A stretch of 64,000 bases of DNA from Batrachochytrium dendrobatidis JAM81 (lineage: Eukaryota; Chytridiomycota; Chytridiomycetes; Rhizophydiales): positions 3,684,532 through 3,748,531 of the forward strand of contig NW_006281099.1 of assembly GCF_000203795.2 (NCBI RefSeq), in the 5' to 3' direction. A program made the position numbers and the translations under genes. Below the pieces are notes generated by a model. The model saw only the letters and a list, made by a program, of their open reading frames with translations, ran no database searches and was not told where the DNA came from. Of the stretch, positions 2,541-61,099 are shown piece after piece. How positions within the stretch are numbered: the first letter of the stretch is position 1; each line of letters begins with the position of its first letter.

Positions 2541-5500
2541 ATGATGACAGACCGCAAGGCAGCTCCAAAGCTGGCCATAGACATAGACATTAATAATAAC
2601 TTGGGTCCATCAGAAAACTCGGCTGCCATATCCACTACAAATCAGCCTAGTCAAGCCCAAACTGATATTGAAACTCGCCATCACGATATCGTTACATTCA
2701 CTGCTGACCTTAGCCGTCACATCTGTCGCATTCTCAACAAAAGTGATGCTCTTGATAGCAGTCAGTTCGACTGTATCCAATACGTAAATCAAATCTTTCC
2801 TGATGAGCAAAGTCTTGTACATGCAGACAAGGTGCTGGAAAAACTGCAGAAGCAGATTCATCATTTAGATAACGAGATGAAAGCTTTGGTGAGGTATCAA
2901 ACCGACGCTAGTCAGCAATCCCGACAAGAGCTGGAGGAAGTTAAACTGGCTATACAGGTAATTTTAACTATTTGGGTATTTCATTGTGGGCTTACTTGAA
3001 TATGTCTTGGAAAATATCGTTTTTGCATTTCATCTCAGTTCTAATTGACATGTATTTTCTATTAGCATCTGGTCGCAAGAATCAAGACTATAAAATCAAA
3101 GGCCACTGAGGCTGAAGATATGGTTCTTGAGATCACTCACGATATCAAATCACTGGACCAGGCTAAGCACAACTTGACTCGCACAATCACCGTATTCAAG
3201 CGACTCCAAATGCTTGGTAATGCCATCAATCTTTTTCCATGCCATATACATGCTACTTTACATTTCATGTCTGACAGATTAGAGTTTTTCATATACATGA
3301 CAGTCAATGCATTGGACCAGCTCAAAGGAGTAGCAAATCGTAAACAGTATCGCGAAACTGCTCATCTTCTTCAGGTATCATTCAAATTTGGAGTCAATCT
3401 AAGGCTTGGATCTTGACCATCAACCCCTACAGAAAAATAACATATTTAAATGTAGATAACCAAACTTCTCATGGACAAGTTCAAGGCATACAAGAATGTT
3501 AAACAGGTCGCTTCAGTATGTGAAACTGGAATCTTGCTTGAAACGGACATTAAACGAACCATCTTTAACGAATTCGAATCTAGGTATATGTACAAGCATG
3601 TTTTGATTTGTAGAATCATTTTTTTAACATTGTTGGGATATTTTCATCAAGCTTTGCTGGTGGGACGTTTAAAATGCAAGTACAGGTTCTCAATGATGCA
3701 TGTCTTGTCATTGATACTTTTGGTTCTGATTCTCGGTAAGATGTTTAATTGAATGGATTTATTTGATTTCATTCTGTGTATCTAACTTTGAATTTGATCA
3801 AGGACTCAACTTATTGACTGGTACTGTGAGGCTCAATTAAAAGATTACCGCGGTATATTTCGCTCAAACCCAGAGGTTAGTTTATTGGTACTGAAACCTA
3901 TCATGCTGAACTCTGTGCATTGATCATTGTACATTTACCATCAAAAACTAAGCTGGTGTAATCTATTTAGGTGGCTGGATTGAATGATATATCACGCCGG
4001 TATGCGTGGTTGAAGCGTGCACTCAAAACACATGATGATCAGCATGCAAATCTATTTATACCAGAATGGGGAGTGGCTGAATGCTTTACAGTAAAGTTTT
4101 GCAGCGACACTTGCAAAGACTTGGCCGATGTGTTGGCCAAATCGGATAAAGATGACACTTTGGATACGGTGATGATGTTGCAGGCGCTACAAACCACAAT
4201 GGAGTTTGAGAGTAAATTGGATAAGCGATTCACGCATAAAGTAAGCGGTTGATGGGTTTTGAGCCTGTATTACTATTGTATTGGTATTTTGTAGACATGA
4301 AGACTAAAAAGTAGATTTGATGGGTTAGAGCTATACCGAGGCGATTCGTAATGAAAATGAACTTGCGCCTTGTACATCCAAGTTTTACAAAATCATAGCA
4401 GTTTGTTTTGAACCGTATCTCTGGCATTATATTGACTTGGAAGACAAGTAAGTGCTTATGTTTTAATGGTTAAAGTATAGTTTTTATTTTTTGGGAGTTG
4501 CAGATATTACTTTTTGTTTACACAAGTGATTCTAAACAATGGTCAATGTTAATATCAGATTACTTTCAGAAAAGTTTGACGTGTTCAAGTCACAGCCCTT
4601 TATTGCAGACGACGAATTGGTCTTTACATCATCCACTGATTTGTTTTTGGTGTATCGTCAAACACTATTAAACGGAGCTCGTCTATCTACACGTAAACCA
4701 TTTCTAGATCTATGCAAAATGTTTGGCAAGTGGCTAAATAATTACAATGATTTGCTAATGAGCAGACTTCCCAAGTAAGGACGCTTTGTTTCTGCATAGC
4801 CGTATGATTTTCAATTTTAACTATTTTGGGATACCCGGCCGTTTTTTAGAGATGATAGGCGAATTCCTATTGATGATGATTTGCGTAATACGTGTTTGGT
4901 GGTAAACACGGCCGATTACTGTGCTTCTACAACTGCTCAGGTGTGTTGGAAAGTGATAGATGTTGTACATATGGATGCAAATCAATATTGAAAATAGTGG
5001 ACTACTTTTTGCATAGGTGTATCTAACAGTTTCGAGCACTATTTTGATTTTTTAGCTAGAGGAAAAACTTATTGAAAAAATTGATTCAGATATGAAAGGT
5101 TTGCTAAGCCTTTCTGCCGAAAAAGACTCTTTTTTTGGGTAAGTTTTACCAGCCTAGTTTTTGCATGGTTTTGCTTCTGAATCAGATTTTCCCCTAATTT
5201 ATGGTTGCAAATATTGTTTGGTTTGATAATATCTCAGGTGCTCAGCAGCAGCAATTCAATGGTTAGTCAAACTAGTAGAAAATGCAAATGAATCTGCATT
5301 ACAATCCATGACAAGACGCCAATGGAACACACTGTCTTCGGTTGGTGACCAATCTGAGCACATCACCCAGATTGCTGTAACGCTTTCTGCTGCTATTAAA
5401 ATCATTCGCAAGACAATAACTAGTTCCAAGTATTTTCGATCGTTTTGTGACAAATTTGTGGAGTTGAGTAAACCTTTTGACTGCCTTGGAATGAACTGCT

Positions 5501-20317: not shown

Positions 20318-20396
20318 AATCAAAGTAGCTGTTGAATTTATATGGAAATGATTAGTAAGGCTGCTAAAATTTTGTAATGACTGATTTCTTGATACT
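20318..20396. other. 3' flank of chitin synthase
   Basis: Short AT-rich 3' region ending at the left end of the next MITE-like element. Confidence 0.4.
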
Positions 20397-20795
20397 TTTA
20401 CAGCCATATTCATGTAAAATGAAACATTAAATAATGGAGTCAAAATGCATAATAAACAGTCAATCTCATGAAATAATGGATATCAATTTTAACTCAATTT
20501 ACTGACAAACTCATTAGTTTGTCAAACTAAGAACGTAAACATCAAGTTTTTAGTTTGGCAATATCTGGATTTCAATACATGAATTTGGGGATCGTATAAT
20601 GCATGGCTATACAAAAAGTGGAGAAGAGGGTAGTTTAATTGTTTGTGCATCATACACTGGTTGGTGTCTTTATTGAAATAATGCAGTCAATGGCTAATAG
20701 AACGATGCAGCGAGTATTTAACCATTGCTTATTGTGAAGCAATCACTGCAAGATAAATAGCAAATGTTCCACTTTACGTGAATAGGGTTGCAAAA
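20397..20795. mobile_element. MITE-like element with inverted ends, about 400 bp
   Basis: Left end (20397-20428): ACAGCCATATTCATGTAAAA, then TGAAACATT. The right end (20764-20795) is inverted: TTCCACTTTACGTGAATAGG. Subterminal DNA is shared with other copies: after the left end, AATAAACAGTCAATCTCATG resembles AATAAACTGCCAGTCTCGTC next to the copy at 31264; before the right end, AACCATTGCTTATTGTGAAG resembles the copies at 574 and 8586. No coding capacity. The outer base pair context (TA before CAG at the left end) suits a Tc1/mariner-pogo type, but a target duplication is not clear on the right. Confidence 0.7.
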
Positions 20796-29479: not shown

Positions 29480-31300
29480 ATGCATTGGACTGCCATTGAA
29501 TCCACTACGGCGACCAAGGCCCGATGTGGTAGCTTGCGTATCTTTAAACGGGGAGTTCTCGTGAATACTCCATGCACTCTTAACTATACTCGTCAAGGCG
29601 CAATACCTCACATTGTTGACCCATCCACTACATTGCCTGTTACTTCTTCAACTCCAATTGCGCTCAACATTGCACTGGAACATTTTGCTGATTCCGCAGA
29701 AACTACTGAGACCCAGTGCAGCAGATCTCAATCCAGTCATGCCTTTGATGCAGATTTACCAAAGAAACCTCTAGCTAGCGACTCGTCTTTATCTCGTCTT
29801 GGCCTAAATATTCCATCGCATATTTTGGTTGCAACTCCACATGATATGGTTCGACTAACTACTCTGGCACATGGTCGATGGATCACCTCTACTAAAACAA
29901 GTATTTCTATGCTTGCAAATGGAAATATTGAGTTGGGGATAACACCAAAAACATTTATGGAACTTGTTAATTCGATTCAGCCTGATATTGCCATTTGCAT
30001 TGCTGATCCTGGTTTGGTCCTGTATTCTGCCAATTCTGGTGATAAAGCGAATGTATCTGCTGCTATAAATACCAAACGGCAGCGTGTGCAAGCAAATGCA
30101 GACACGATCATTGGCACAAATTCAAGTGCTGGTCAAGATGACGACGCAGCTCACCAAGAAATCCGGAGAAAAAAGCTATTGCGAAAACAATCTGATCGCA
30201 ATCTGACCTTTTTAAAGTCTGTTGCTCAGATTCTTGCAACACCTGATCCAAACAGTGGTTCATACTTTGATTCAGTTACTACTATCTCCACTACACACAA
30301 AACTACAGTAGCCGAATCATCACCTCCTCCATGTCAAGATAGAGTAGCCATGTTTGCCCATCTATGTGGTGGAATAGATCTAGAAGAGCGATTGTTTTAT
30401 TCTACTCAGGTTGCACAGTATTTTATTAACCCTGATGTCACTATAAGTGGTGTTGCAGTCACTTTACCTTCTCAAGAAGTACGCAAAGCATCTGGATGTG
30501 TAATCACGGCTTTTCTTGACGCATCTCTTGGCTCCATACCTTTTCATGTTCCAGTGATTGCACTAGGAGTATCTAGTATACAGGATTTGGTTTCTTGTGT
30601 TGCGTCAGGTGTCGACATGATTGATAATTCTTGGATATATACTCTGACGCAAAAGGGCATAGCTTTGGTTGCTTCCTTTAGATCACAAGTAAATCCTGTT
30701 TCAAAAGACCAATCATTGGATATAGTGGTAGAACACAGTTTATCCAAGACACCTTGCATGCCATCAACTCACATATCTGATGCTACAGATAACATGCCTT
30801 CAAAACAAAATGACTTGGATATTGGACAATCTCATCTCAATGAAGTTCTGATGGATTTATCACCACAAACTGCTTTGAAATCTCAAACTAAACGATCGCG
30901 TATGCAATTCCAACCAGCAGTAGCAGCAGTTGTAGATGCTTTAGTAGCTTCGGAAAGTGTTGATTATGTTCATGAAACGGATGTTCCAGCCATTGCTGTT
31001 ATTGAAAAAGACACCGAGGAACTTGAGTCGATTGCTCGACCACTTTCGCACTTACAGACGGACATGGACCCTATTGATGCTTTATGTGGATGTTGGACTT
31101 GCAAACAACCTTACTCTAAAGCATATATTCGTCATCTTCTTGTGGTGAATGACATGCTAGCCTATGTGTTGCTTATGCACCATAATATGTGGCAATTTGA
31201 ATCGTTTGTTGGAGAAATGCGCGAGTGTGTATCAGATGGATCATTTGAAAAGTATGCAACTCGGTTTTTATCGCCGTATTCACATAAAATGGAACACTAA
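29480..31300 (+). CDS. QTRT2: Queuine tRNA-ribosyltransferase accessory subunit 2
   Basis: Non-catalytic partner of QTRT1; the heterodimer exchanges guanine 34 for queuine in GUN-anticodon tRNAs, using salvaged queuine. Intronless, 606 residues, longer than animal QTRT2 (about 415) through Ser/Thr-rich inserts at about 65-110, 190-280 and 420-510. Landmarks: TLNYTRQGAIPH near the N-terminus, HMEH-free TGT barrel segments, and the zinc site CGCWTCKQPYSKAYIRHLL with the distal histidine in LLMHHNM. The catalytic subunit is not in the window. The last 11 codons and the stop (31265-31300) lie in the dispersed end motif that also begins the large palindrome, and they recur inverted at 41555-41592; the native C-terminus may have been replaced. 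Confidence 0.92.
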   Translation: MHWTAIESTTATKARCGSLRIFKRGVLVNTPCTLNYTRQGAIPHIVDPSTTLPVTSSTPIALNIALEHFADSAETTETQCSRSQSSHAFDADLPKKPLASDSSLSRLGLNIPSHILVATPHDMVRLTTLAHGRWITSTKTSISMLANGNIELGITPKTFMELVNSIQPDIAICIADPGLVLYSANSGDKANVSAAINTKRQRVQANADTIIGTNSSAGQDDDAAHQEIRRKKLLRKQSDRNLTFLKSVAQILATPDPNSGSYFDSVTTISTTHKTTVAESSPPPCQDRVAMFAHLCGGIDLEERLFYSTQVAQYFINPDVTISGVAVTLPSQEVRKASGCVITAFLDASLGSIPFHVPVIALGVSSIQDLVSCVASGVDMIDNSWIYTLTQKGIALVASFRSQVNPVSKDQSLDIVVEHSLSKTPCMPSTHISDATDNMPSKQNDLDIGQSHLNEVLMDLSPQTALKSQTKRSRMQFQPAVAAVVDALVASESVDYVHETDVPAIAVIEKDTEELESIARPLSHLQTDMDPIDALCGCWTCKQPYSKAYIRHLLVVNDMLAYVLLMHHNMWQFESFVGEMRECVSDGSFEKYATRFLSPYSHKMEH

Positions 31301-32432
31301 ATAAAAGAGTAATAAACTGCCAGTCTCGTCAAACGATGGCAGTCAGTTTATTCGACAATAGTTTGCCTTTTAAACTTCCCAGCAACGTTGACTGATATTT
31401 GCTCATGTCTGTATAAAAACTGGACAAATGTTCAGACAACATTCACACATGTTCCAGTAAACCCTATATCCTTGGCATTTGTTTAATCTCCAAGTCATCC
31501 CCTAAATACCGACATACTATTTTAATCCTTGTGTACTGCATTCTGGTTTGGGTCTAAATGCCGACAACTCAAACATTCAATAACCACACTTCAAATCTGG
31601 ACAATAGCATGGATGTCTTCATGACACTGCAAGCCAAACCCCAACACATCAGTCGTGACGTTGAGTACTCCAACCATGTCACAATAGTGTGGTCGAATGT
31701 GAACCAACTACTATGCATTGACTGCACGTTTTGGCTGGCTTGATTTTGCATTTACAAACTCTACTGATCCAGTCACTCATATTTACCAACCAAATCCTGT
31801 GTAGTCGATAGTCGGGATTCTGTTGATTAAAGTTGGTTTCAGTGGCGTCTTGTATGACTGATACAATACCAATGCAGTGTTGTCTGCTTGATATAATATG
31901 ATAAATAACGGTATATTTATTACTAATGTTTCGAGTTGATGTGGCAAATATTGCTTTATGATGGCCGCATTATTATCAGTAATCCTAGTATATGGTTTGT
32001 ATTGACCATCACTACCAAAAAGCATCAACCACGTACTAGTTGTGACAATGCAGCTCGATGCGGTCCATTATTGCAAATATGTTTAGATTACTAAACACAT
32101 CTATTGATGTAGTCATCCGAGTAAACCCAGCGTATTATGCCAAAAACAGCGCATCACCAACCAGTTACTCGACATGTTCGAGTAGATATTGGTGTTGTAG
32201 TTTGGACCGCATTCAAACTCATGTATTTCGTTTAGACCAAAGTTTAATCACACAAAGACCCAATCTGCCAATGGTTCATGTGCGGTAGATACTGATATAG
32301 TTGATTGAGCTGACATTTTACATCTAAGATTGAGTAGTTTGAAATATAATACCAGCCACAAGCTTGGTAATATCACCGAGATGGCATCACAAGTGATCTA
32401 TCAGTATTATTCTACACCCCAACACATTATAC
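31301..32432. repeat. Outer part of left palindrome arm
   Basis: No convincing gene. On the minus strand 31783-32028 there is an 81-codon frame that is conserved in the mirror copy (40828-41073, plus) with a single residue change; it has no family I recognise. The rest is AT-rich. Confidence 0.6.
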
Positions 32433-32932
32433 TCGAATTTACAATACAACTTGTCTAGAATAATACTCCAGTCACTATTGAACTATGTTGACCAACTAAG
32501 CAAGAGTTCATAACTACCCTGATTCCAGTATGCTTTTACAACATATTACCACGTTTAAATGGATCAGGGTTATGATTGTAGTCAAGCTTTGTTAGACAAG
32601 CAAAATGGAGATTCTACTAATGAACATTTGACATTCTAATACCCTGACTAGTAAAATTAAAAGCAATCTTTAAAACCTGCATTGCTTTGTTTTACAGTCT
32701 ATACTATGACGATTGAGTTATTCTGTAATTGTGCTTGAATACACCTACCGAACAATGTTTAAAAGCATGTGTGCTTTATATAATTTTGAAACGGTGGCTA
32801 AATATGATTTACTCGGTCCCATACTGGTTTAGTCGGGTTACCATTTACTGCTGCTGAGTATCCTTGACCATATGCAAGGCTTTGTAACTATCCAAATACA
32901 ATTTTTCAGATTGTTTCAGGTCAAATCTGCAA

Positions 32933-32938
32933 TATAAA
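32933..32938 (+). promoter_or_regulatory. TATA box of unit A
   Basis: TATAAA in AATATAAAAAGCC, 93 bases before the ATG at 33031, conserved in all four units. Confidence 0.55.
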
Positions 32939-33030
32939 AAGCCAAGTTTTTATCCAACTCTTGGACTCATCAAACATTGTCTATTCTATTCTATTCTATT
33001 CCAATCCAATCCAATCTATATCAACCAACT

Positions 33031-33207
33031 ATGCAATTCACTGTCATCGCATTCATCGCGGCACTCGTCGTATCTGTCACTGCTGCTCCTAGTCCATTTG
33101 GTCTCCCAAGACTTTGCAATACAGATTCAGAGTGTGGTTCAGGATTAAAGTGCGTAGTTGAACCAGGCGATGGAATAGGATTTTGCCTCCTTGCCACTAA
33201 TGCCTAA
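33031..33207 (+). CDS. Small secreted cysteine-rich protein, unit A
   Basis: 58 residues. Signal peptide MQFTVIAFIAALVVSVTA, predicted cut before AP. The mature part of about 40 residues has four cysteines spaced C-x5-C-x5-C-x10-C and a GDGIGFC end. The start is the ATG at 33031; upstream in-frame codons use only TTG. The 5' leader holds a run of ATTCT/ATCCA-type pentamers. Function unknown; a secreted peptide made outside the cell is inferred. The pattern C..D.EC..G.KC....G.C recalls small disulfide modules of secreted proteins, but no family is named. Confidence 0.8.
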   Translation: MQFTVIAFIAALVVSVTAAPSPFGLPRLCNTDSECGSGLKCVVEPGDGIGFCLLATNA

Positions 33208-34144
33208 AAGTCTTGGCTATATGCGTGTCAGCATCTGATTTGGAGCTTGTTCAAGTCACACCGACTAGTTTAAACTTGTAAATTTTGAAATGAATAAATC
33301 TCACTTTACGATGATATTTGGTTGATACTGTATATCGTGATTTTGTATACGTTGATCACAAACTGTTGTTCCGAGTCGAGTATGACCTCGTTGTATAACA
33401 ACGGTTCAACCTGTCGAGTCTGATTATTAGCGTATAAAGTATGGATATGCTAATATGCTAATATATGCAAGTTTAAAAACAATCACATACTGCAATGTCT
33501 ATCTGTATATGTACTGATGTCCCAGATTACAATCAACACACTCTGTTTGTAAATAGTCAAACCAAGTAATTACTAAAATGATTTCATTTTGAAACAAATA
33601 CAGCTTTAATAATAGATTTTGATCATACAACTGTTCTATAATTGTTTGTCATTTTTAAGACGCAATAGTCCAAAATAAGCTTTATATTTTGATATTCACA
33701 GTTTCCGACTATTTGCAAACAAAACTTATTGCAAGATCAGCAAGTGTCAATACAATACAACCTTGACTAATCATTTGTATTCATGAGTGACAGACTGGTA
33801 AAAAACCAACCAGTTATTGATTGTAATCTGGGACATCAGTACATATACAGATAGACATTGCAGTATGTGATTGTTTTTAAACTTGCATATATTAGCATAT
33901 TAGCATATCCATACTTTATACGCTAATAATCAGACTCGACAGGTTGAACCGTTGTTATACAACGAGGTCATACTCGACTCGGAACAACAGTTTGTGATCA
34001 ACGTATACAAAATCACGATATACAGTATCAACCAAACATCATCGTAACGTGGGTTTATTCATTTCAAAATTCACAAGTTTAAACTAGTCGGTGTGACTTG
34101 AACAAGCTCCAGATCAGATGCTGACACGCATATAGTCAAGACTT

Positions 34145-34312
34145 TTAGGCATACTCGCATGTTCCAAGGCTGTTATCTATCATTTTACATTTCATGCCTG
34201 GGGGACAGACTCTGTCCTTTCTGCAAATTTTCGGGCGACCAAATGGACCAAGAGGAGTGGCAGTGACAGATACCACGAGTGCTGCGATGAATGCGATGAC
34301 AGTGAATTGCAT
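34145..34312 (-). CDS. Small secreted cysteine-rich protein, unit B
   Basis: 55 residues. The signal peptide is identical to unit A up to the final T in VSVTATP. The mature peptide is the most divergent of the four (basic, RPKICRKDRVCPPGMKC, then C-x9-C), yet keeps all four cysteines. Its promoter, leader and 3' flank are nearly identical to units A, C and D. Function unknown. Confidence 0.8.
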   Translation of the reverse strand: MQFTVIAFIAALVVSVTATPLGPFGRPKICRKDRVCPPGMKCKMIDNSLGTCEYA

Positions 34313-34403
34313 AGTTGGTTGATATAGATTGGATTGGATTGAACTAGGTTGGATTGGAATAGACAATGTTTGATGAGTCCAAGAGTTGGATAAAACCTGG
34401 CTT

Positions 34404-34409
34404 TTTATA
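34404..34409 (-). promoter_or_regulatory. TATA box of unit B
   Basis: TATAAA on the minus strand, 92 bases before the ATG at 34312; same context as in unit A. Confidence 0.5.
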
Positions 34410-35287
34410 TTGCAGATTTGACCTGGAACAATCTGAAAAACCGTATTTGGTATAGCCATAAAGCCTTGCATATGGTCAAGGATACTCAGCAGCAGTAAAT
34501 TGAGCCGGACTAAACCAGTATGGGACCGAGTAAATCATATTTAGCCACTATTTCAAGATTACATAAAATAGACATGCTTCTGAACATTGCTCAGCAGGTG
34601 TATTCAAGCACAATTACAGAATAACTCAATCGTCATAGTATAGACTGTAAAACAAAGCAATGCAAGTTTTAAAGATTGCTTTTAATTTTACTAGTTAGGG
34701 TATTAGAATGCCAAATGTTCATTAGTAGAATCTCCATTTTGCTTGTCTAACAAAGCTTGACTACAATCATAACCCTGATCCATTTAAACGTGGTAATATG
34801 TTGTAAAAGCATACTGGAATCAGGGTAGTTATGAACTCTTGCTTAGTTTGGTCAACATAGTTCAATAACGACTGGAGTATTATTCTAGACAAGTTGTATT
34901 GTAAATTCGAATGTCAGCAATGCAAGTATAATATGTAACAATAGCCAACTCTTATAGAAGAACTATAGTAATCAGGAAACTCAATAATGATGCTTGAGTG
35001 GAAGTCCGCACATCTTCCTTTGCTGACCCTTCACTACTCCAAGTCCCATTACAAAGATTGCACATTATCAATGTCTAACAGCTTTAACAATACTCACATT
35101 GGAATGCTGGCTATATACACTTAGATATACTTGATGAAAATGTGTCAAACCATGACTTTCATGACAACACTGTACAAACTGTACGAGTTTAAAAGATTAT
35201 TGATGGATATTGTCCAATTTGATTGATGGCTGCAATTATTTTGTTGGCTCGAGTTTCATTTTCTTTCCCTCCAAAAAACAACATCAA

Positions 35288-36319
35288 ATGAATATTGAAA
35301 CAACAAAAGCAGCAGCAACACAACTGTTGAATGAATACTACCAAATCAGCACTCAAGCCATACCAACACAGAGAGCCAAGTCTGAATGGCAGGATGACAA
35401 CAAACGAGGTTTCTTCTTGGGCATCATCCAAGAGGGAGAAACCTCACACACCACTCAGTTGCACGACCTGCTGGCTGCCAACCAATTTGCAGAGCAGCAG
35501 CAGTTCTCAACCAAGGTCCAGTTGGCAGACTCAGAGCATCCTCGTACATTCATTGACGAGATGTTTGAGTACTACATACTACCATTCCACAAAGACTACA
35601 ACGATTCATCCAGCTGCCACACTCCAGCCTCTTCAAGGGCACCATCAAGAACCAACTCTGCTGGAAATATAAGCAATGTCCCAAAAGAGAGTGAGCTGTC
35701 TCACAGGGACTTGAAGAATGCCGTCGAGAAAAGAGACGGCGCCTGCTTGTTTTGCTGGGATAAGCTGTCCTTGCAAGGAGCACACATTGGAGTAGCGTAC
35801 AACGAATCCCCAATCCTGTTACGAGCTGGTCTAGCGCAGAAACATCAAATACAGAACGGACTGTTGTTGTGTATCAACTGCCATAGCCGATTTGGTAAAC
35901 TAAGGCAATATGTGGATGTGGTGGATGACAAACTGGTGATCAAAGTGATCAATGAGACGAATGATCCAACAAGCGAGAAGCACATGAATTGGGAATGAGC
36001 TGTTCGAAATTTACGAGCATTGCGCATTGCTAACGAAGAAGACTGGGCTCGGATTGATAATCGACAAGCAGTCGAATCTAATGGCGAGATGGCATTATAC
36101 TTTGTTCTTGACGATCCAACTCTGCAGCCAAACAGAGATGCACTAGAGTTCCACAAGACAGCATGTCTTATTTGGCGTATTGCTGGTGGTGCAGAATCTG
36201 ATGATGAATATTGTCCACATGATGATGACGATGGCTGTACTCCTGTAGATTACCGGAGTAAGAGCATCGAAAAATGGATGGACTCAAGTGCTACCTTGAT
36301 TATTGAAAATGTTCAATAA
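35288..36319 (+). pseudogene. HNH-nuclease-like protein, interrupted by one in-frame TGA
   Basis: From the first in-frame ATG (35288) the frame runs 236 residues to TGA at 35996-35998, then stays open in the same frame for another 106 codons to a TAA at 36317-36319. The first part has an HNH-type zinc/nuclease segment: EKRDGACLFCWDKL, then GAHIGV, then NGLLLCINCHSRFG. It resembles the HNH domain common in fungal expanded proteins of unknown role. The part after TGA (AVRNLRALRIANEEDWARID...) reads like its natural continuation, with an acidic DDDD tail. Either the gene is broken, or it ends at TGA, or the stop is read through. It lies in the palindrome centre and is single copy here. Confidence 0.6.
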
Positions 36320-36985
36320 AATTGTGTATTCATTACAAGAGACTGGTTTCTGTTACAGCAATAGTTGTCATTGTAGTGAGTGTGAATACCAACAGTTGAT
36401 GTTGACACTTGAATTCAAGCAATAATGAAAGCAACTCAAATGTCTCTTTCCATTGCAGTGAGACAGTTTGTCAACCAACAATGTCTCATCAATTGATGAC
36501 ACATTCAGATTCTAGTAATGATGATGTTGCTACCAATGATCGTGGAACTGATAGTGCAGTATTTTTACACTGTGGTGGGACAACTCGGTATCATGTCAAT
36601 CATGTCCACCGTTGTGGAAATCACTTGTTAATCTACTCTGAATGGACAAGTCTCTTTTCCATGTTTAATCAATGTATCTTTATATCTGCTTGAATAAAGC
36701 ACTTGTGATTGTTTCTATTTATTGTTCTGGAATTGTGTTTTTGCTTTCTTTACCCTTTTTTACTCTCCTTCTCCTTCTCAAGATCGGAATTCAATGAATA
36801 GTACTATCTGTATGTTTTCTGGTCTTTATCCTTGTTTCTTTGATAACAGTCTCGATGTCATTGTCACAATTGCTCATTTTCATTTGGGTTGCAATGATTC
36901 CAATTCCGTATGCGTTCAAGATATTCATTGTGGGTATTGATTTCGAAATTCATTGTATAATATTACCCAACACAATAATTTCATG
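36320..36985. other. Centre of palindrome, unassigned
   Basis: About 660 bp between the HNH ORF and the integrase relic. Short ORFs (36409-36693, 36722-36940) have no recognisable family. A pyrimidine-rich run (36735-36785) is the only compositional feature. Confidence 0.4.
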
Positions 36986-37765
36986 TAAATACATTAGTCT
37001 TTTCATGTAGCGGTTCAAGAGTATATTCCACTAACTCGGCAATTTCACGCTTGTTACGACGCTCCGTTTGGATCAATGGCCGTTCTCATACTGGTGTATC
37101 AAATGCACCTGGAAAATCAAGTAATATTTTGTAATTCATAAATGTTGTACCGTTGCTCGAGCTGAACTGCCTTATTGTTTTGTAGTAGATAGGAGTATCC
37201 ATCTCCCGCATATATTTGATAGTCAGATTTGATAAATGTTGGCACATATCCCTTTTGAAAAGCCTTCACTTTCAAGATTCTGACCTTGTCACCAATTCCA
37301 AAATAATCACTGAATCCAGATGCTCTACAGTATACAGAGCTTGGATTTTACAGAGGTATGTTTTCAGGTGTCATTTGTAACTCTATTGACAGCGTGATTG
37401 TAATTATAGACCAAATCATTCAAAGCGACAATGTATATATGTGTGTTTCTGCTTTCCTGATATATGCTGATCAATTGATCAACTGCTCAATAGTCCTGTT
37501 GAATCTCTGTACAATGCCTAGCCTTTTATGGTCACTGACGTCAACAGTAATGTGTCTGACATTCACTGATTTTAATCACTTTTGAAATGTCATGTTCAAG
37601 AACTCTGTTCTGTTGTCGCTTTGAATTAGCATTGGTTGATTTCTATCCAATATGTTAGCCATGGCATCTGTTGTATCGGACTTTCACTTCAACAGACACG
37701 AAAGCCTTTCTACTAAACACATCAACAGCGCAAAACAAGTATATCTAAGTGTATATAGCCAGCAT
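36986..37765 (-). pseudogene. Relic of a retroviral/Polinton-type integrase
   Basis: Reading on the minus strand across frames: AVDVFSRKAFV (first catalytic Asp, about 37700-37728), then QSDNRTEFLN (second Asp, about 37590-37625), then DHKRLGIVQRFNRTIEQL (about 37485-37545) where the usual catalytic Glu of the VERFNRT motif is Gln, then LVYNYNHAVN (about 37395-37425), then a C-terminal SH3-like piece GIGDKVRILKVKAFQKGY (about 37250-37300) and a YNIYELQ end near 37135. At least two TGA stops and two frameshifts separate these pieces, so it cannot make an active enzyme. The combination of DDE core and a VRI..K..F.KGY tail is typical of Polinton/Maverick and related integrases. The left palindrome arm stops a few bases into the same frame. 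Confidence 0.7.
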
Positions 37766-38459
37766 TCCAATGTGAGTATTGTTAAAGCTGTTAGACATTG
37801 ATAATGTGCAATCTTTGTAATGGGACTTGGAGTAGTGAAGGGTCAGCAAAGGAAGATGTGCGGACTTCCACTCAAGCATCATTATTGAGTTTCCTGATTA
37901 CTATAGTTCTTCTATAAGAGTTGGCTATTGTTACATATTATACTTGCATTGCTGACATTCGAATTTACAATACAACTTGTCTAGAATAATACTCCAGTCG
38001 TTATTGAACTATGTTGACCAAACTAAGCAAGAGTTCATAACTACCCTGATTCCAGTATGCTTTTACAACATATTACCACGTTTAAATGGATCAGGGTTAT
38101 GATTGTAGTCAAGCTTTGTTAGACAAGCAAAATGGAGATTCTACTAATGAACATTTGGCATTCTAATACCCTAACTAGTAAAATTAAAAGCAATCTTTAA
38201 AACTTGCATTGCTTTGTTTTACAGTCTATACTATGACGATTGAGTTATTCTGTAATTGTGCTTGAATACACCTGCTGAGCAATGTTCAGAAGCATGTCTA
38301 TTTTATGTAATCTTGAAATAGTGGCTAAATATGATTTACTCGGTCCCATACTGGTTTAGTCGGGTTACCATTTACTGCTGCTGAGTATCCTTGACCATAT
38401 GCAAGGCTTTATGGCTATCCAAATACAATTTTTCAGATTGTTCCAGGTCAAATCTGCAA

Positions 38460-38465
38460 TATAAA
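38460..38465 (+). promoter_or_regulatory. TATA box of unit C
   Basis: TATAAA 112 bases before the ATG at 38577; the extra distance comes from a longer pentamer run in the leader. Confidence 0.5.
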
Positions 38466-38576
38466 AAGCCAGGTTTTATCCAACTCTTGGACTCATCAAA
38501 CATTGTCTATTCCAATCCAACCTAGTTCAATCCAATCCAACCTAGTTCAATCCAATCCAATCTATATCAACCAACT

Positions 38577-38747
38577 ATGCAATTCACTGTCATCGCATTC
38601 ATCGCAGCACTCATCGTATCTGTCACTGCTGCTCCTCTTGGTCCATTTGGTCCCCCAGACTTTTGCAATGATAGCAGCGAGTGTGCTCCAGGATTCAAAT
38701 GCTCAATTGGCCCAGGCGATGGAATAGGATTTTGCCTCCGTATTTAA
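38577..38747 (+). CDS. Small secreted cysteine-rich protein, unit C
   Basis: 56 residues. The signal peptide differs from unit A by one residue (I for V). Mature peptide: LGPFGPPDFCNDSSECAPG, then KC, then GDGIGFCLRI; four cysteines in the A/D spacing. The CDS sits in a frame different from the longest local ORF, which starts at a TTG at 38503. The leader has the longest pentamer run of the four copies. Function unknown. Confidence 0.8.
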   Translation: MQFTVIAFIAALIVSVTAAPLGPFGPPDFCNDSSECAPGFKCSIGPGDGIGFCLRI

Positions 38748-39668
38748 AAGTCTTGGCTATATGCGTGTCAGCATCTGATTTGGAGCTTGTTCAAGTCACA
38801 CCGACTAGTTTAAACTTGTGAATTTTGAAATGAATAAACCCACGTTACGATGATGTTTGGTTGATACTGTATATCGTGATTTTGTATACGTTGATCACAA
38901 ACTGTTGTTCCGAGTCGAGTATGACCTCGTTGTATAACAACGGTTCAACCTGTCGAGTCTGATTATTAGCGTATAAAGTATGGATATACTAATATGCTAA
39001 TATATGCAAGTTTAAAAACAATCACATACTGCAATGTCTATCTGTACTGATGTCCCAGATTACAATCAATAACTGGTTGGTTTTTTACCAGTCTGTCACT
39101 CATGAATACAAATGATTAGTCAAGGTTGTATTGTATTGACACTTGCTGATCTTGCAATAAGTTTTGTTTGCAAATAGTCGGAAACTGTGAATATCAAAAT
39201 ATAAAGCTTATTTTGGACTATTGCGTCTTAAAAATGACAAACAATTATAGAACAGTTGTATGATCAAAATCTATTATTAAACCTGTATTTGTTTCAAAAT
39301 GAAATCATTTTAGTAATTACTTGGTTTGACTATTTACAAACAGAGTGTGTTGATTGTAATCTGGGACATCAGTACATATACAGATAGACATTGCAGTATG
39401 TGATTGTTTTTAAACTTGCATATTAGCATATCCATACTTTATACGCTAATAATCAGACTCGACAGGTTGAACCGTTATTATACAACGAGGTCATACTCGA
39501 CTCGGAACAACAGTTTGTGATCAACGTATACAAAATCACGATATACAGTATCAACCAAATATCATCGTAAAGTGAGATTTATTCATTTCAAAATTTACAA
39601 GTTTAAACTAGTCGGTGTGACTTGAACAAGCTCCAAATCAGATGCTGACACGCATATAGCCAAGACTT

Positions 39669-39839
39669 TTAAATACGGAGGCAAAATCCTATTCCATCGC
39701 CTGGTTCAACTACGCATTTGAATCCTTTGGTACACTCGCTGTTATCATTGCAAAATTTTGGGGGACTAAGTATACCAAGAGGAGCAGCAGTGACAGATAC
39801 GACGAGTGCCGCGATGAATGCGATGACAGTGAATTGCAT
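39669..39839 (-). CDS. Small secreted cysteine-rich protein, unit D
   Basis: 56 residues. Signal peptide identical to unit A. Mature peptide: PPKFCNDNSECTKGFKC, then VVEPGDGIGFCLRI. The C-terminal half equals unit A up to the last residues, and the end LRI equals unit C, a mosaic that suggests gene conversion. Although D is the mirror of A in the palindrome, their mature N-terminal halves differ more than the DNA around them. Function unknown. Confidence 0.8.
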   Translation of the reverse strand: MQFTVIAFIAALVVSVTAAPLGILSPPKFCNDNSECTKGFKCVVEPGDGIGFCLRI

Positions 39840-39916
39840 AGTTGGTTGATATAGATTGGATTGGATTGGAATAGACAATGTTTGATGAGTCCAAGAGTTG
39901 GATAAAAACTTGGCTT

Positions 39917-39922
39917 TTTATA
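39917..39922 (-). promoter_or_regulatory. TATA box of unit D
   Basis: TATAAA on the minus strand, 78 bases before the ATG at 39839; the shortest of the four leaders. Confidence 0.5.
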
Positions 39923-40422
39923 TTGCAGATTTGACCTGAAACAATCTGAAAAATTGTATTTGGATAGTTACAAAGCCTTGCATATGGTCAAGGATACTCA
40001 GCAGCAGTAAATGGTAACCCGACTAAACCAGTATGGGACCGAGTAAATCATATTTAGCCACCGTTTCAAAATTATATAAAGCACACATGCTTTTGAACAT
40101 TGTTCGGTAGGTGTATTCAAGCACAATTACAGAATAACTCAATCGTCATAGTATAGACTGTAAAACAAAGCAATGCAGGTTTTAAAGATTGCTTTTAATT
40201 TTACTAGTCAGGGTATTAGAATGTCAAATGTTCATTAGTAGAATCTCCATTTTGCTTGTCTAACAAAGCTTGACTACAATCATAACCCTGATCCATTTAA
40301 ACGTGGTAATATGTTGTAAAAGCATACTGGAATCAGGGTAGCTGTGGACTCTTGCTTAGTTTGGTCAACATAGTTCAATAACGACTGGAGTATTATTCTA
40401 GACAAGTTGTATTGTAAATTCG

Positions 40423-41554
40423 AGTATAATGTGTTGGGGTGTAGAATAATACTGCTAGATCACTTGTGATGCCATCTCGGTGATATTACCAAGCTTGCGT
40501 CTGGTGTTATATTTCAAACTACTCAATCTTAGATATAAAATGTCAGCTCAATCAACTATATCAGTATCTACCGCACATGAACCATTGGCAGATTGGGTCT
40601 TTGTGTGATTAAACTTTGGTCTAAACGAAATACATGAGTTTGAATGCGGTCCAAACTACAACACCAATATCTACTCGAACATGTCGAGTAACTGGTTGGT
40701 GATGCGCTGTTTTTGGCATAATACGCTGGGTTTACTCGGATGACTACATCGATAGATGTGTTTAGTAATCTAAACATATTTGCAATAATGGACCGCATCG
40801 AGCTGCATTGTCACAACTAGTACGTGGTTGATGCTTTTTGGTAGTGATGGTCAGTACAAACCATATACTAGGATTACTGATAATAATGCGGCCATCATAA
40901 AGCAATATTTGCCACATCAACTCGAAACATTAGTAATAAATATACCGTTATCTATCATATTATATCAAGCAGACAACACTGCATTGGTATTGTATCAGTC
41001 ATACAAGACGCCACTGAAACCAACTTTAATCAACAGAATCCCGACTATCGACTACACAGGATTTGGTTGGTAAATATGAGTGACTGGATCAGTAGAGTTT
41101 GTAAATGCAAAATCAAGCCAGCCAAAACGTGCAGTCAATGCATAGTAGTTGGTTCACATTCGACCACACTATTGTGACATGGTTGGAGTACTCAACGTCA
41201 CGACTGATGTGTTGGGGTTTGGCTTGCAGTGTCATGAAGACATCCATGCTATTGTCCAGATTTGAAGTGTGGTTATTGAATGTTTGAGTTGTCGGCATTT
41301 AGACCCAAACCAGAATGCAGTACACAAGGATTAAAATAGTATGTCGGTATTTAGGGGATGACTTGGAGATTAAACAAATGCCAAGGATATAGGGTTTACT
41401 GGAACATGTGTGAATGTTGTCTGAACATTTGTCCAGTTTTTATACAGACATGAGCAAATATCAGTCAACGTTGCTGGGAAGTTTAAAAGGCAAACTATTG
41501 TCGAATAAACTGACTGCCATCGTTTGACGAGACTGGCAGTTTATTACTCTTTTA
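40423..41554. repeat. Outer part of right palindrome arm
   Basis: Mirror of 31301-32432. Contains the plus-strand copy (40828-41073) of the conserved 81-codon frame beginning LFGSDGQYKPYTRITDNN; stops just upstream in the same frame and the lack of a known domain make a live gene unlikely. Confidence 0.6.
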
Positions 41555-41650
41555 TTTAGTGTTCCATTTTATGTGAATACGGCGATAAAAACTACTAGTG
41601 AAATCTTATTGATTTAATAATTAATATAATAACAAGGCTTTTAATCGCAT

Positions 41651-41724
41651 GGTTCTATGGTGTAGTTGGTTATCACATGTCCTTAACACGGACAAGGTCT
41701 CCAGTTCAATCCTGGATGGAATCA
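41651..41724 (+). tRNA. tRNA-Val (AAC)
   Basis: 74-nt cloverleaf without intron. Acceptor GGTTCTA pairs fully with TGGAATC (two G-U pairs), discriminator A. Anticodon stem TGTCC/GGACA encloses loop TTAACAC, so the anticodon is AAC. T-stem TCCAG/CTGGA encloses TTCAATC. The D-arm GTGTAGTTGGTTATCAC is valine-like and gives a good A box. A TTTT Pol III terminator follows at 41725-41728. It lies 58 bp outside the right end of the palindrome and is not present at the left end. Confidence 0.95.
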
Positions 41725-41809
41725 TTTTAGATTAAATGAATTTTTTATTTCAATGAGATTTAATCCAGGTATTTTATCAGTAATGCAATATGATTGTTGT
41801 GACAAACTG

Positions 41810-42114
41810 CTTTTGTTTCAACCATGAAGCACTATTTTGCAGTGATTGCCTTGTTGAAATAGACAATGATTAGATATTTGTTGTACTTGTTACAGACGGA
41901 CAGTTTCGATAGACATTCCCGATGCCTAGAATTGCACGCTTTGCAAAACCACTTTAAATCGTAGTCAAGAATAGACAGTATGAAGATGCATTGCAATACT
42001 GCAGATTAGTTGGCAAGCAATTAGACTAAAGAGTTGAAAGCACAATCCAGTAAACTGACCAATCATTCCGACTGTTTTAGTATTCCATTTTACGTGAATA
42101 CGGCGGTAAAAACC
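41810..42114. mobile_element. MITE-like element, about 300 bp
   Basis: The right end (42079-42114) is a near-consensus reverse motif (ATTCCATTTTACGTGAATAC, then GGCGGTAAAAACC). The left side is decayed but recognisable: CATGAAGCACTATTTTGCAG, then TGATTGCCTTG, matching the inner left flank of other copies; the exact left border is uncertain. It ends 78 bp before the GPATCH1 start. Confidence 0.55.
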
Positions 42115-57533: not shown

Positions 57534-59088
57534 TCAAAGGAATCCTTCTTCCTCAACTTCATCTTGTAGATTACGGAGATCTTGAGCACCAGACGCGTGT
57601 TCGTTATTGTTTCCTTCATTGGACGCAAAGTGACCACCTTGAGGAGCAGCTTGACTGAGATCAGTCACGACGTTTTTGAAAAGTTTTCCAACATCGTTGT
57701 CCAAGAACCGAATGGCAGGAGATCGCTGCATGCCTTCAAAAATCCCAGTATCTCCCGTTTGACATGCTGTCAGTAGATCCTGTGTAACCTGGCCTTCCTC
57801 AGTTTGCTCAAACCTATTATTCCTGTATGTTTCAACGCCATATAGGGTCAACTAGTTAAACATCTCGGCTGTCTTATAGCATCCAGTATATTCTGAAACT
57901 TACTTTTGCAAAGACATTTCATATTGCCGCTGTGCAGCAGATTGATCACCCTTTGAAAGAAATAGAATCACATTGGTGAGTGCTTGACGGTTATATAGCG
58001 GCTGGTTGTCTATCTTAAGATATGCGCTTTCCAGTCGGATGGAAAGTGCAATAGCCTGATCAAGCCTGTATACACGATATCAGTCCATCACAAACAATAC
58101 AAGTTAAATTGCGCAATATCAAGACAAGTGATTGACAAGTGATCTTGGACACATCAAAAATAGGTTAAATGAAAAACCTACTTGGAGGATCGTAGACAAA
58201 ATCCAATGGCACGTTTGAACGTATCCACACCGAATCTAAGTCGATCTTCCTCTTCATACAATGTACACGACTCGGTATAGTACTCGATTGCCTTGCTTGC
58301 ATCCACCGTTTCAAACGCCCTAACATAGTGAATCACCACAACCAAAAGCTTAATATCAAAATAAAATAGGCTTTCATAGTACACATACATGGTAGAGGCA
58401 CACACAGTGAATCAGTGATCAAGCTTACTTGGCAGCCTTTTCAAGCATCTCGCCTGCTCGATCTGGAGACCCTTGCACAAGAAAATATTGACTAGCTTGC
58501 TGGTACACTGTGCCAGCTCGTTGAGGATCATTCATGTTCTGAGAAAGGACATTGGCAGCAGTTTCCAAAGCCTTGGCAGCAAGAAACATTCTACATTTGA
58601 ATTGAGTTTAGTGTTCCATTGAGGGTCTTGCCCTTGACAGTCGTATTCACGTAACATGAAACACTACATAGAGACTCTTGAAAATCTATGCTTACGAGTT
58701 TAGATTGCGATGGCATTCTGCAGCCTGTTGAAGAGCCTCTGCAGCCCTTGCGTACTGTCGGTCGTTTCTGTAGAGGTTGGCTAGTAAGAGTTGAATAGAA
58801 TGAGTTAGTTGAAATGCTCACTAGTCTGCTTGATCATCAAACAGGTCTTGGACTCATGCATGACAGTCCATATTGTAAACCACTGCAACCAAGCCATGCA
58901 GTCATATATACAAATTGGTCTGCTGGACATCAACTGATGTCAACATGCTATGACAGATGCGAGTACAACACACCAGCCTGTTCAAAGCTGTTTAGGGCAT
59001 CGTCATAGTCAGGTTTAGCCTTTCCAAAGAAGGAAGTCTTTGTTAGAGCCTTTGCTCCATCCTTCATCAAATCATCAGCCTCTCCCAT
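57534..59088 (-). CDS. NAPG: Gamma-SNAP, NSF attachment protein
   Basis: Adapter that helps NSF take apart SNARE complexes after membrane fusion. Six exons (minus): 59088-58974, 58780-58696, 58590-58429, 58319-58182, 58065-57904, 57822-57534; 316 residues, the family length. TPR-like helical repeats run through most of it: ARAAEALQQAAECHRNLN, MFLAAKALETAANVL, SPDRAGEMLEKAAKAFE, KAIEYYTESCTLYEEEDRLR, then DNQPLYNRQALTNVI and the C-terminal SPAIRFLDNDVGKLF. The last segment and the RFG..TFKRA part favour gamma over alpha-SNAP. Intron 2 (58591-58695) contains a foldback relic of the dispersed repeat motif. Confidence 0.92.
58599..58666. repeat. Repeat-motif foldback inside a gamma-SNAP intron
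   Basis: Reads AGTGTTCCATTGAG, a short spacer, then GACAGTCGTATTCACGTAAC and ATGAAACACT. The forward motif is complete; the reverse one keeps only its inner 11 bases. This nearly fills a 105-nt intron, and both splice sites lie just outside it, so it may be the remnant of an insertion tolerated, or turned into an intron. Confidence 0.6.
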
Positions 59089-60548: not shown

Positions 60549-61099
60549 TTTTACAGTTGTATTCACGTAAATGGAATACTTTTTTATATTTGTCTTGCAA
60601 CAACTGCGTTTATTTTCCAAAATAAAAAATGACCAAATATATCTGCTGTGCTCATCAACTACTTTTTTACAGCCGTATTCACGTAAAATAAAATATTTGT
60701 TTTTGTCATTGAAGACGTTGGCTTTATACAAAAAAGGAATATCTGGAAAGACCATGGCATTGAAGAGGCTCTGTTGTATTCTAATATCAGATACATTCGC
60801 GCTCTAGTTCAACATATCTCAATAATGCAACAATTGTTTCCATGCCGGTCATGTCATGTTCACTTGAAATGCTTGGTCCGGAAAAAAGGAAAGTTGGAGG
60901 TTGAACCAATGTCAAGAGTGTGGAATGTATTGAAACAGAGATGTGAGCATTTGCACTGTATTCTTGTACAAGAATGAGCAGAGACCAGTCAACTAATGAG
61001 TTTATAAAACAATACTACCCAATAAGATTGACACCAAGCATGACTGTTTATCATGTAGTTTAGGTTAGTGTTTCATTTTACGTGAATACGCCTGTAATA
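60549..61099. mobile_element. MITE-like element(s), nested ends
   Basis: Two forward ends (60549-60580, with ACAGTTGTATTCACGTAAAT; and 60664-60698, with ACAGCCGTATTCACGTAAAA) face one reverse end (61066-61099, TTTCATTTTACGTGAATACG). Either a 436-bp element (60664-61099) next to a solo end or a 551-bp element with an inner insertion fits. The inner flank of the reverse end matches that of the copy at 2449. No coding capacity. The left end forms the 5' leader/promoter of cytochrome b5. Confidence 0.65.

What the first reader, a model, noticed from the sequence alone, without database searches (positions are those of the whole stretch)
31264..41592. Nested palindrome of 10.3 kb carrying four copies of a secreted-peptide unit
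Arms of about 3.86 kb are inverted copies around a 2.6-kb centre, and each arm contains its own inverted pair of 1.1-kb units. The order + - + - with D mirroring A and C mirroring B means at least two successive inverted duplications. Outer borders coincide with a dispersed terminal-repeat motif, and the centre holds an HNH ORF and an integrase relic. This may be a previously undescribed mobile or amplifying unit that carries effector-like genes. Large palindromes are prone to cruciform formation, gene conversion and copy-number change.
Basis: seen in the sequence. Interest (0 to 1): 0.88.

Follow-up and report, generated by a model that had tools for sequence, protein, structure and literature searches.

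The report
Palindrome of hypervariable secreted peptide genes
In a frog-killing chytrid fungus, a mirror-image stretch of DNA carries four copies of a small secreted-peptide gene whose surroundings are kept nearly identical while the part encoding the secreted peptide differs sharply, which suggests that mirrored gene pairs help to generate peptide variety.

Summary
The palindrome is real: 31264-35133 mirrors 37736-41592 (95.9%), each arm holding an inverted pair of peptide genes. The organism is Batrachochytrium dendrobatidis, judged from named protein matches. Outer borders fall in a dispersed transposon-like terminal repeat; a second palindrome about 2.5 Mb away has the same pair and a border in the same motif. 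I do not think it is a mobile unit: extents differ, no target-site duplication beyond TA is visible, and the centre is a truncated copy of a ~5-kb element. The main result: 71 of 99 arm mismatches fall in the 222 aligned sites encoding mature peptide (32%, against 0.8% in the other 3607). The pattern recurs in three of four other inverted pairs; the fourth (L009) shows the reverse. Eighteen genes share a conserved signal peptide, four invariant cysteines and a hypervariable mature part. Mosaics in the window and in proteins from other assemblies point to short-tract gene conversion between inverted copies. The HNH family at the centre has a comparable variable cassette. No reads or other strains' DNA were available.

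The parts
31264..35133 (+). left palindrome arm
   Evidence: inner and outer limits re-read
37736..41592 (-). right palindrome arm (inverted copy of the left)
31271..31310 (+). terminal-repeat motif of a dispersed Tc1/mariner-like short element at the outer left border (class inferred from CAG-type ends and TA)
41546..41585 (-). mirrored terminal-repeat motif at the outer right border
33031..33207 (+). peptide gene A, 58 aa
34145..34312 (-). peptide gene B, 55 aa
38577..38747 (+). peptide gene C, 56 aa
39669..39839 (-). peptide gene D, 56 aa
33088..33207 (+). mature-coding part of A: arm mismatches run 33091-33204
34145..34255 (-). mature-coding part of B: dense arm mismatches 34148-34236
35129..37780 (+). 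centre: truncated copy of a dispersed ~5-kb element with inverted ends; its right 45 nt (37736-37780) is also copied inverted at 35089-35133
35288..35998 (+). HNH_2 reading frame, shorter than the 368-378-codon open copies elsewhere
35993..36058 (+). position of the variable cassette of the HNH family
29480..31300 (+). QTRT2-like gene (Pfam TGT); its last 37 nt lie inside the left arm
41650..41725 (+). tRNA-Val (aac), flank of the right arm

Best explanation
A two-step inverted duplication of a small secreted cysteine-rich peptide gene, later remodelled by short-tract gene conversion between inverted copies. Shown: the nested palindrome; near-identity of arms outside the mature-peptide coding parts; strong divergence inside them; a switch of the closest relative within one mature part; a 5-nt overlap (ACTTG) at the inner left junction. 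Inferred: a first inversion made the convergent gene pair shared with other loci; a later template switch or fold-back inside the HNH element copied the whole pair outward to the transposon end beside QTRT2. Since then conversion has kept promoters, signal peptides and 3' regions alike, while the mature parts are kept different by selection for new peptides and by poor pairing of diverged DNA, and are sometimes exchanged in patches. The likely role is diversification of a secreted peptide that acts outside the fungal cell; what it acts on is unknown.
For: Arms: 99 mismatches in 3829 aligned sites, 71 in 222 mature-coding sites, 28 in the other 3607 (hypergeometric P 1.2e-69, which treats sites as independent); no window of 111 bp away from the two coding sequences has 8 or more. 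Same direction in J (12 of 23 mismatches in 101 of 3406 sites), L011 (35 of 66 in 111 of 912) and L012 (36 of 82 in 111 of 959). Four-way site patterns: AD|BC 28, AB|CD 7, AC|BD 1; all seven AB|CD sites lie in the mature part of the gene. Where A and C differ, D follows A at 22 of 23 upstream, 2 of 2 signal and 15 of 15 downstream sites, but follows C at 19 of 28 mature sites, A at 8, neither at 1. Database proteins of the species: P0004 follows J2 except for a J1-like stretch at residues 21-26; P0003 is Y-like with an X-like end. Codon model: omega 1.37 for the mature part, 1.98 without the cysteines, 0.41 for the signal part; likelihood-ratio P 0.0036, 0.0005, 0.036. Silent differences at unchanged mature codons are raised in pairs with flanks under 3% apart (26 of 279 codons in 14 non-independent pairs), which selection alone would not give.
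Against: L009: the pair is identical in the mature part (0 of 108) and differs elsewhere (31 of 846). In L013 against L014 and L015 other patches of 14-22% lie in non-coding DNA, so islands are not confined to mature parts. The two HNH palindromes looked at as controls also carry islands. Three mature-part comparisons (J pair, C/D, Y/Y) have 26 changed residues and no silent change in 77 unchanged codons, which fits plain positive selection. Recombination can bias omega. P0003 has one residue (37) found in neither parent. No population data; expression was not examined.
Confidence: 0.6

Rival explanations
1. Cassette import: the variable block itself moves. A ~110-bp mature-coding block is replaced by conversion from another locus, with signal peptide and 3' region as homology, and the flanks are alike simply because the duplications are recent.
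For: A/D flanks differ at 2 of 675 sites while the mature parts differ at 27 of 111. L013 against L014: most 100-bp bins over 4 kb are 0-10% apart, the mature part about 37% against L015. HNH cassettes look like discrete alleles shared between loci whose neighbouring ORF differs by 9%.
Against: For window A, B, C and L013 the nearest mature relative in this genome is still 15-38% away, so no donor is visible except C/D-like exchange. Within-locus conversion of flanks is needed as well for L011 (0 of 350 downstream) beside 29 of 318 upstream.
Confidence: 0.25
2. Recent inverted duplication followed by very fast positive selection on the mature part, with no conversion.
For: omega above 1 in the mature part; no silent change at 77 unchanged codons in three close mature comparisons.
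Against: Raised silent divergence at unchanged codons, 26 of 279; topology switch and D mosaic; mosaic proteins in other assemblies.
Confidence: 0.1
3. A mobile composite bounded by transposon ends that carries the peptide genes.
For: Borders of two palindromes lie in the same terminal motif.
Against: No target-site duplication beyond TA; different content and extents; no transposase found in the arms (ORF list; only the ORFs named were profiled).
Confidence: 0.06
4. Assembly artefact from fold-back reads.
For: Mirror-image structure in a long-contig assembly; no reads were available.
Against: Arms of palindromes in this genome range from 71% to 99% identity; a fold-back read would copy both arms alike, mature parts included. 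The QTRT2 protein that ends inside the arm is present, as a single sequence, on 7 database contigs, the longest 4,539,083 bp against 4,429,270 for this one; that supports the left border only.
Confidence: 0.04

Closest known systems
Sex-chromosome palindromes with arm-to-arm gene conversion (mammals; willow, PMC7023750, passages seen)
   Same: Large inverted arms carrying gene pairs, sequence kept alike apparently by intrachromosomal conversion.
   Different: Here the arms are 3.9 kb, on a contig not known to be a sex chromosome, and the coding part that matters is the part that is NOT kept alike.
Conotoxin-type hypervariable secreted peptides (PMC3823881, abstract and outline seen)
   Same: Conserved signal peptide, hypervariable inter-cysteine loops, conserved cysteines with position-specific codons.
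   Different: No sequence relationship was tested or is claimed; 4 cysteines, fungal, no propeptide seen; inverted-pair arrangement.
Tc1/mariner-type short elements (MITEs; class from recall)
   Same: TA next to short inverted ends at the outer border; complete short copies in the window.
   Different: The palindrome as a whole shows no sign of having inserted as such an element.
Secreted protein families of Batrachochytrium (PMC9926174, passages; PMC12204190, abstract, one section and passages)
   Same: Secreted, multi-copy, in a repeat-rich genome.
   Different: In the passages seen the named families are M36, CBM18, crinklers and others; whether this peptide family sits in one of the numbered tribes could not be checked (supplements not held).

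Membership tests
Palindrome maintained by arm-to-arm conversion | large inverted arms of high identity | tested here: met
   95.9% overall; 99.2% outside mature-coding sites (28 of 3607 differ)
Palindrome maintained by arm-to-arm conversion | direct evidence of conversion between arms (against orthologous arms or pedigrees) | tested here: inconclusive
   Site patterns and mosaics support exchange; no orthologous DNA from other strains was available
Conotoxin-like hypervariable secreted peptides (as a way of working, not a homology) | conserved signal peptide, hypervariable mature part | tested here: met
Conotoxin-like hypervariable secreted peptides (as a way of working, not a homology) | position-specific cysteine codons | tested here: met
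   18 of 18, 16 of 18, 14 of 18, 18 of 18; no test against codon usage was run
Conotoxin-like hypervariable secreted peptides (as a way of working, not a homology) | known fold or sequence family | tested here: not met
   Pfam and NCBIfam matches of member A below cut-off; PDB profile search best E 0.023, to zinc-finger proteins; model pLDDT 69, no PDB fold match at E 0.001 or better, best 0.86
Tc1/mariner-type insertion (whole palindrome) | inverted terminal repeats | tested here: met
Tc1/mariner-type insertion (whole palindrome) | TA target-site duplication | tested here: inconclusive
   TA present at both borders but inside the mirrored sequence, so uninformative
Tc1/mariner-type insertion (whole palindrome) | same bounded unit at several sites | tested here: not met

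The most novel reading that the evidence does not exclude
Inverted gene pairs in this chytrid work as diversity generators: conversion between mirrored copies keeps regulatory and targeting parts uniform while short coding cassettes (mature peptide; a 66-bp block of an HNH protein) are kept or swapped as discrete variants. Two unrelated families would then share one genomic device, comparable in logic to cassette systems for antigenic variation but built from palindromes.
Probability: 0.35. Interest if true: 0.82.

Novelty: new variant of a known kind. Interest (0 to 1): 0.64.

Why it matters
It would tie genome architecture (palindromes) directly to rapid change of secreted peptides in a fungus blamed for amphibian declines, and would give a test case for how conversion and selection together make sharp borders between uniform and variable parts of a gene. 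My searches of the open-access library found no description of it; subscription papers and supplements were not searched.

Tried and rejected
Mobile composite: rejected as the main reading (see rivals). E-element terminus as the inner junction: first suspected from the constant left end; rejected because other copies continue past that point with a shared sequence, so the window copy is cut there with a 5-nt overlap. Which arm is the older: left open; the fold-back geometry and the completeness of the outer motif point in opposite directions. Integrase relic: no Pfam support. Rfam: no match in the window. First protein search with a single peptide found nothing; the 18-sequence profile found 4 proteins, all of this species among those listed; distant relatives elsewhere cannot be excluded, as the search needs shared 5-residue words. 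HNH palindromes L019 and L022 were meant as plain controls and turned out to have islands of their own; L019 also has a second cluster of mismatches at E 35226-35362 and L022 a small one at 35791-35811. Fold search: no significant match. The fixed-omega runs assume that the model string fixes omega at 1; the output did not print it.
Full report
Identity of the source. The window is G000:C1:3684532-3748531 of a 23.49-Mb, 33-contig genome. A profile of the peptides found four database proteins, all named Batrachochytrium dendrobatidis in the columns shown, so I take it as that amphibian-infecting chytrid fungus; the assembly itself is unnamed.

The observation. Arms 31264-35133 and 37736-41592 are inverted copies (95.9%), with a 2.6-kb centre and a smaller inverted pair in each arm. 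The four genes encode peptides of 55-58 residues with a signal-peptide-like start and four cysteines.

Where the arms differ. The mismatches are not spread out. Of 99 in 3829 aligned sites, 71 lie in the 222 sites encoding the mature parts. For A/D they run from 33091 to 33204, that is from codon 21 to the stop, with none in the signal-coding part; for B/C the dense run is 34148-34236, with four more at 34258-34276, two of them in the signal part. No 111-bp window clear of the two coding sequences holds 8 or more. The indels lie partly elsewhere (69 gap columns).

The family. A six-frame search of the genome gave 18 genes, a lower bound. Twelve of the 18 sit in six inverted pairs: A/B and C/D in the window, J, L009, L011 and L012; five pairs are convergent, L009 is divergent. 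Invariant in all 18: four cysteines and nine other positions, seven of them at or before residue 18. Diversity in 15-bp bins is near zero in signal and 3' parts and 0.09-0.67 in the mature part within the window group, the C21 group and the C3/C12/C23 group, although the 5' leader at -75 to -30 is raised as well. Cysteine codons are position-specific: TGC 18 of 18, TGT 16 of 18, TGC 14 of 18, TGC 18 of 18.

Selection and silent change. Omega is 1.37 for the mature part (1.98 without cysteines) and 0.41 for the signal part, each different from 1 by likelihood ratio (P 0.0036, 0.0005, 0.036), with the caveat of recombination. Three close mature comparisons (J1/J2, C/D, L011Y/L012Y) have 26 changed residues and no silent change in 77 unchanged codons, as positive selection would give; but among the 14 pairs whose flanks differ by under 3%, 26 of 279 unchanged codons carry silent differences. 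A/D flanks differ at 2 of 675 sites, their mature parts at 27 of 111. So the mature parts are older than their flanks look.

Exchange between copies. Among A, B, C and D, 28 informative sites pair A with D and B with C; seven pair A with B and C with D, all within 33121-33204. D follows A outside the mature part (39 of 40 informative sites) and mostly C inside it (19 of 28). In proteins from other assemblies, P0004 looks like J2 with a J1 patch and P0003 like Y with an X end, while P0002 and P0005 equal X and the single-copy C31 gene. These are few sequences, and two of the four show no change.

Counter-example and controls. The L009 pair is identical in the mature part and differs elsewhere, as expected if conversion sometimes covers the mature part too. 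L013 differs from L014 and L015 in the mature part (about 37% against L015) but also in some non-coding patches. The HNH palindromes L019 and L022, meant as controls, have an island of their own: in both, a dense run of mismatches at element coordinates 35993-36058, while the ORF on either side differs by 0-1%. Across nine copies (36 pairs) this cassette is either 0-4% different (4 pairs) or 36-48% different (32 pairs), and is shared between loci whose neighbouring ORF differs by about 9% (window with L019p, L019m with L022p). So the phenomenon is not special to the peptides; I read that as one mechanism acting on two families, but it may also mean that patchy conversion leaves islands for reasons other than selection on peptides.

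Origin of the palindrome. The centre is a truncated copy of a dispersed element; two longer copies (L017, L018) have inverted ends about 5 kb apart. The last 45 nt of that copy (37736-37780) are repeated inverted at 35089-35133, and the join to the element's left part shares ACTTG with both partners (read). This fits a template switch or fold-back priming with a 5-nt overlap. The outer ends lie at the tip of a dispersed terminal repeat; a second palindrome (J, arms 3413 columns at 99.2%, spacer 290 bp) has its border about 30 nt inside the same motif. The repeat tip may be a preferred site of breakage or switching (inference). Flanks show no direct repeat.

Literature. Listings only were seen; for PMC12204190 the abstract, section 6 and passages, for PMC9926174 passages, for PMC3823881 abstract and outline, for PMC7023750 passages. 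'Palindrom' does not occur in the main text of PMC12204190 or PMC9926174.

Verdict. A real nested palindrome, not shown to be mobile; the striking feature is near-uniform arms with sharply bounded variable coding parts, best explained by conversion between inverted copies plus selection on the mature peptide.

Noticed in passing
window 35993-36058; L019, L022, L017, L018, L020, L021: 66-bp coding cassette of the HNH_2 family that is either nearly identical or 36-48% different between copies, independent of the surrounding ORF.
   Followed up: partly
L019 773-9901; L022 2676-6469; L023 2676-4700; L024 3299-4058: Four of 11 fetched loci of the HNH element hold inverted dimers, 71-98% alike, so inverted duplication seems frequent in this genome.
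   Followed up: partly
window 29480-31300: The last 37 nt of the QTRT2-like ORF lie in the palindrome arm, mostly in the transposon-like end, so the protein's last residues come from it; the same protein is on 7 database contigs.
   Followed up: partly
window 20391-20790, 60660-61095, 58607-58670, 42076-42113: Further copies or pieces of the short terminal-repeat element in the window.
   Followed up: no
L013, L014, L015, L016: Single peptide genes on three contigs lie in multi-kb segmental duplications, 97-98% alike over 3-8 kb where aligned.
   Followed up: no
L008+L041, J 3000-4350: The arm of the second palindrome holds what looks like a decayed reverse-transcriptase stretch (by eye, not tested).
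   Followed up: no
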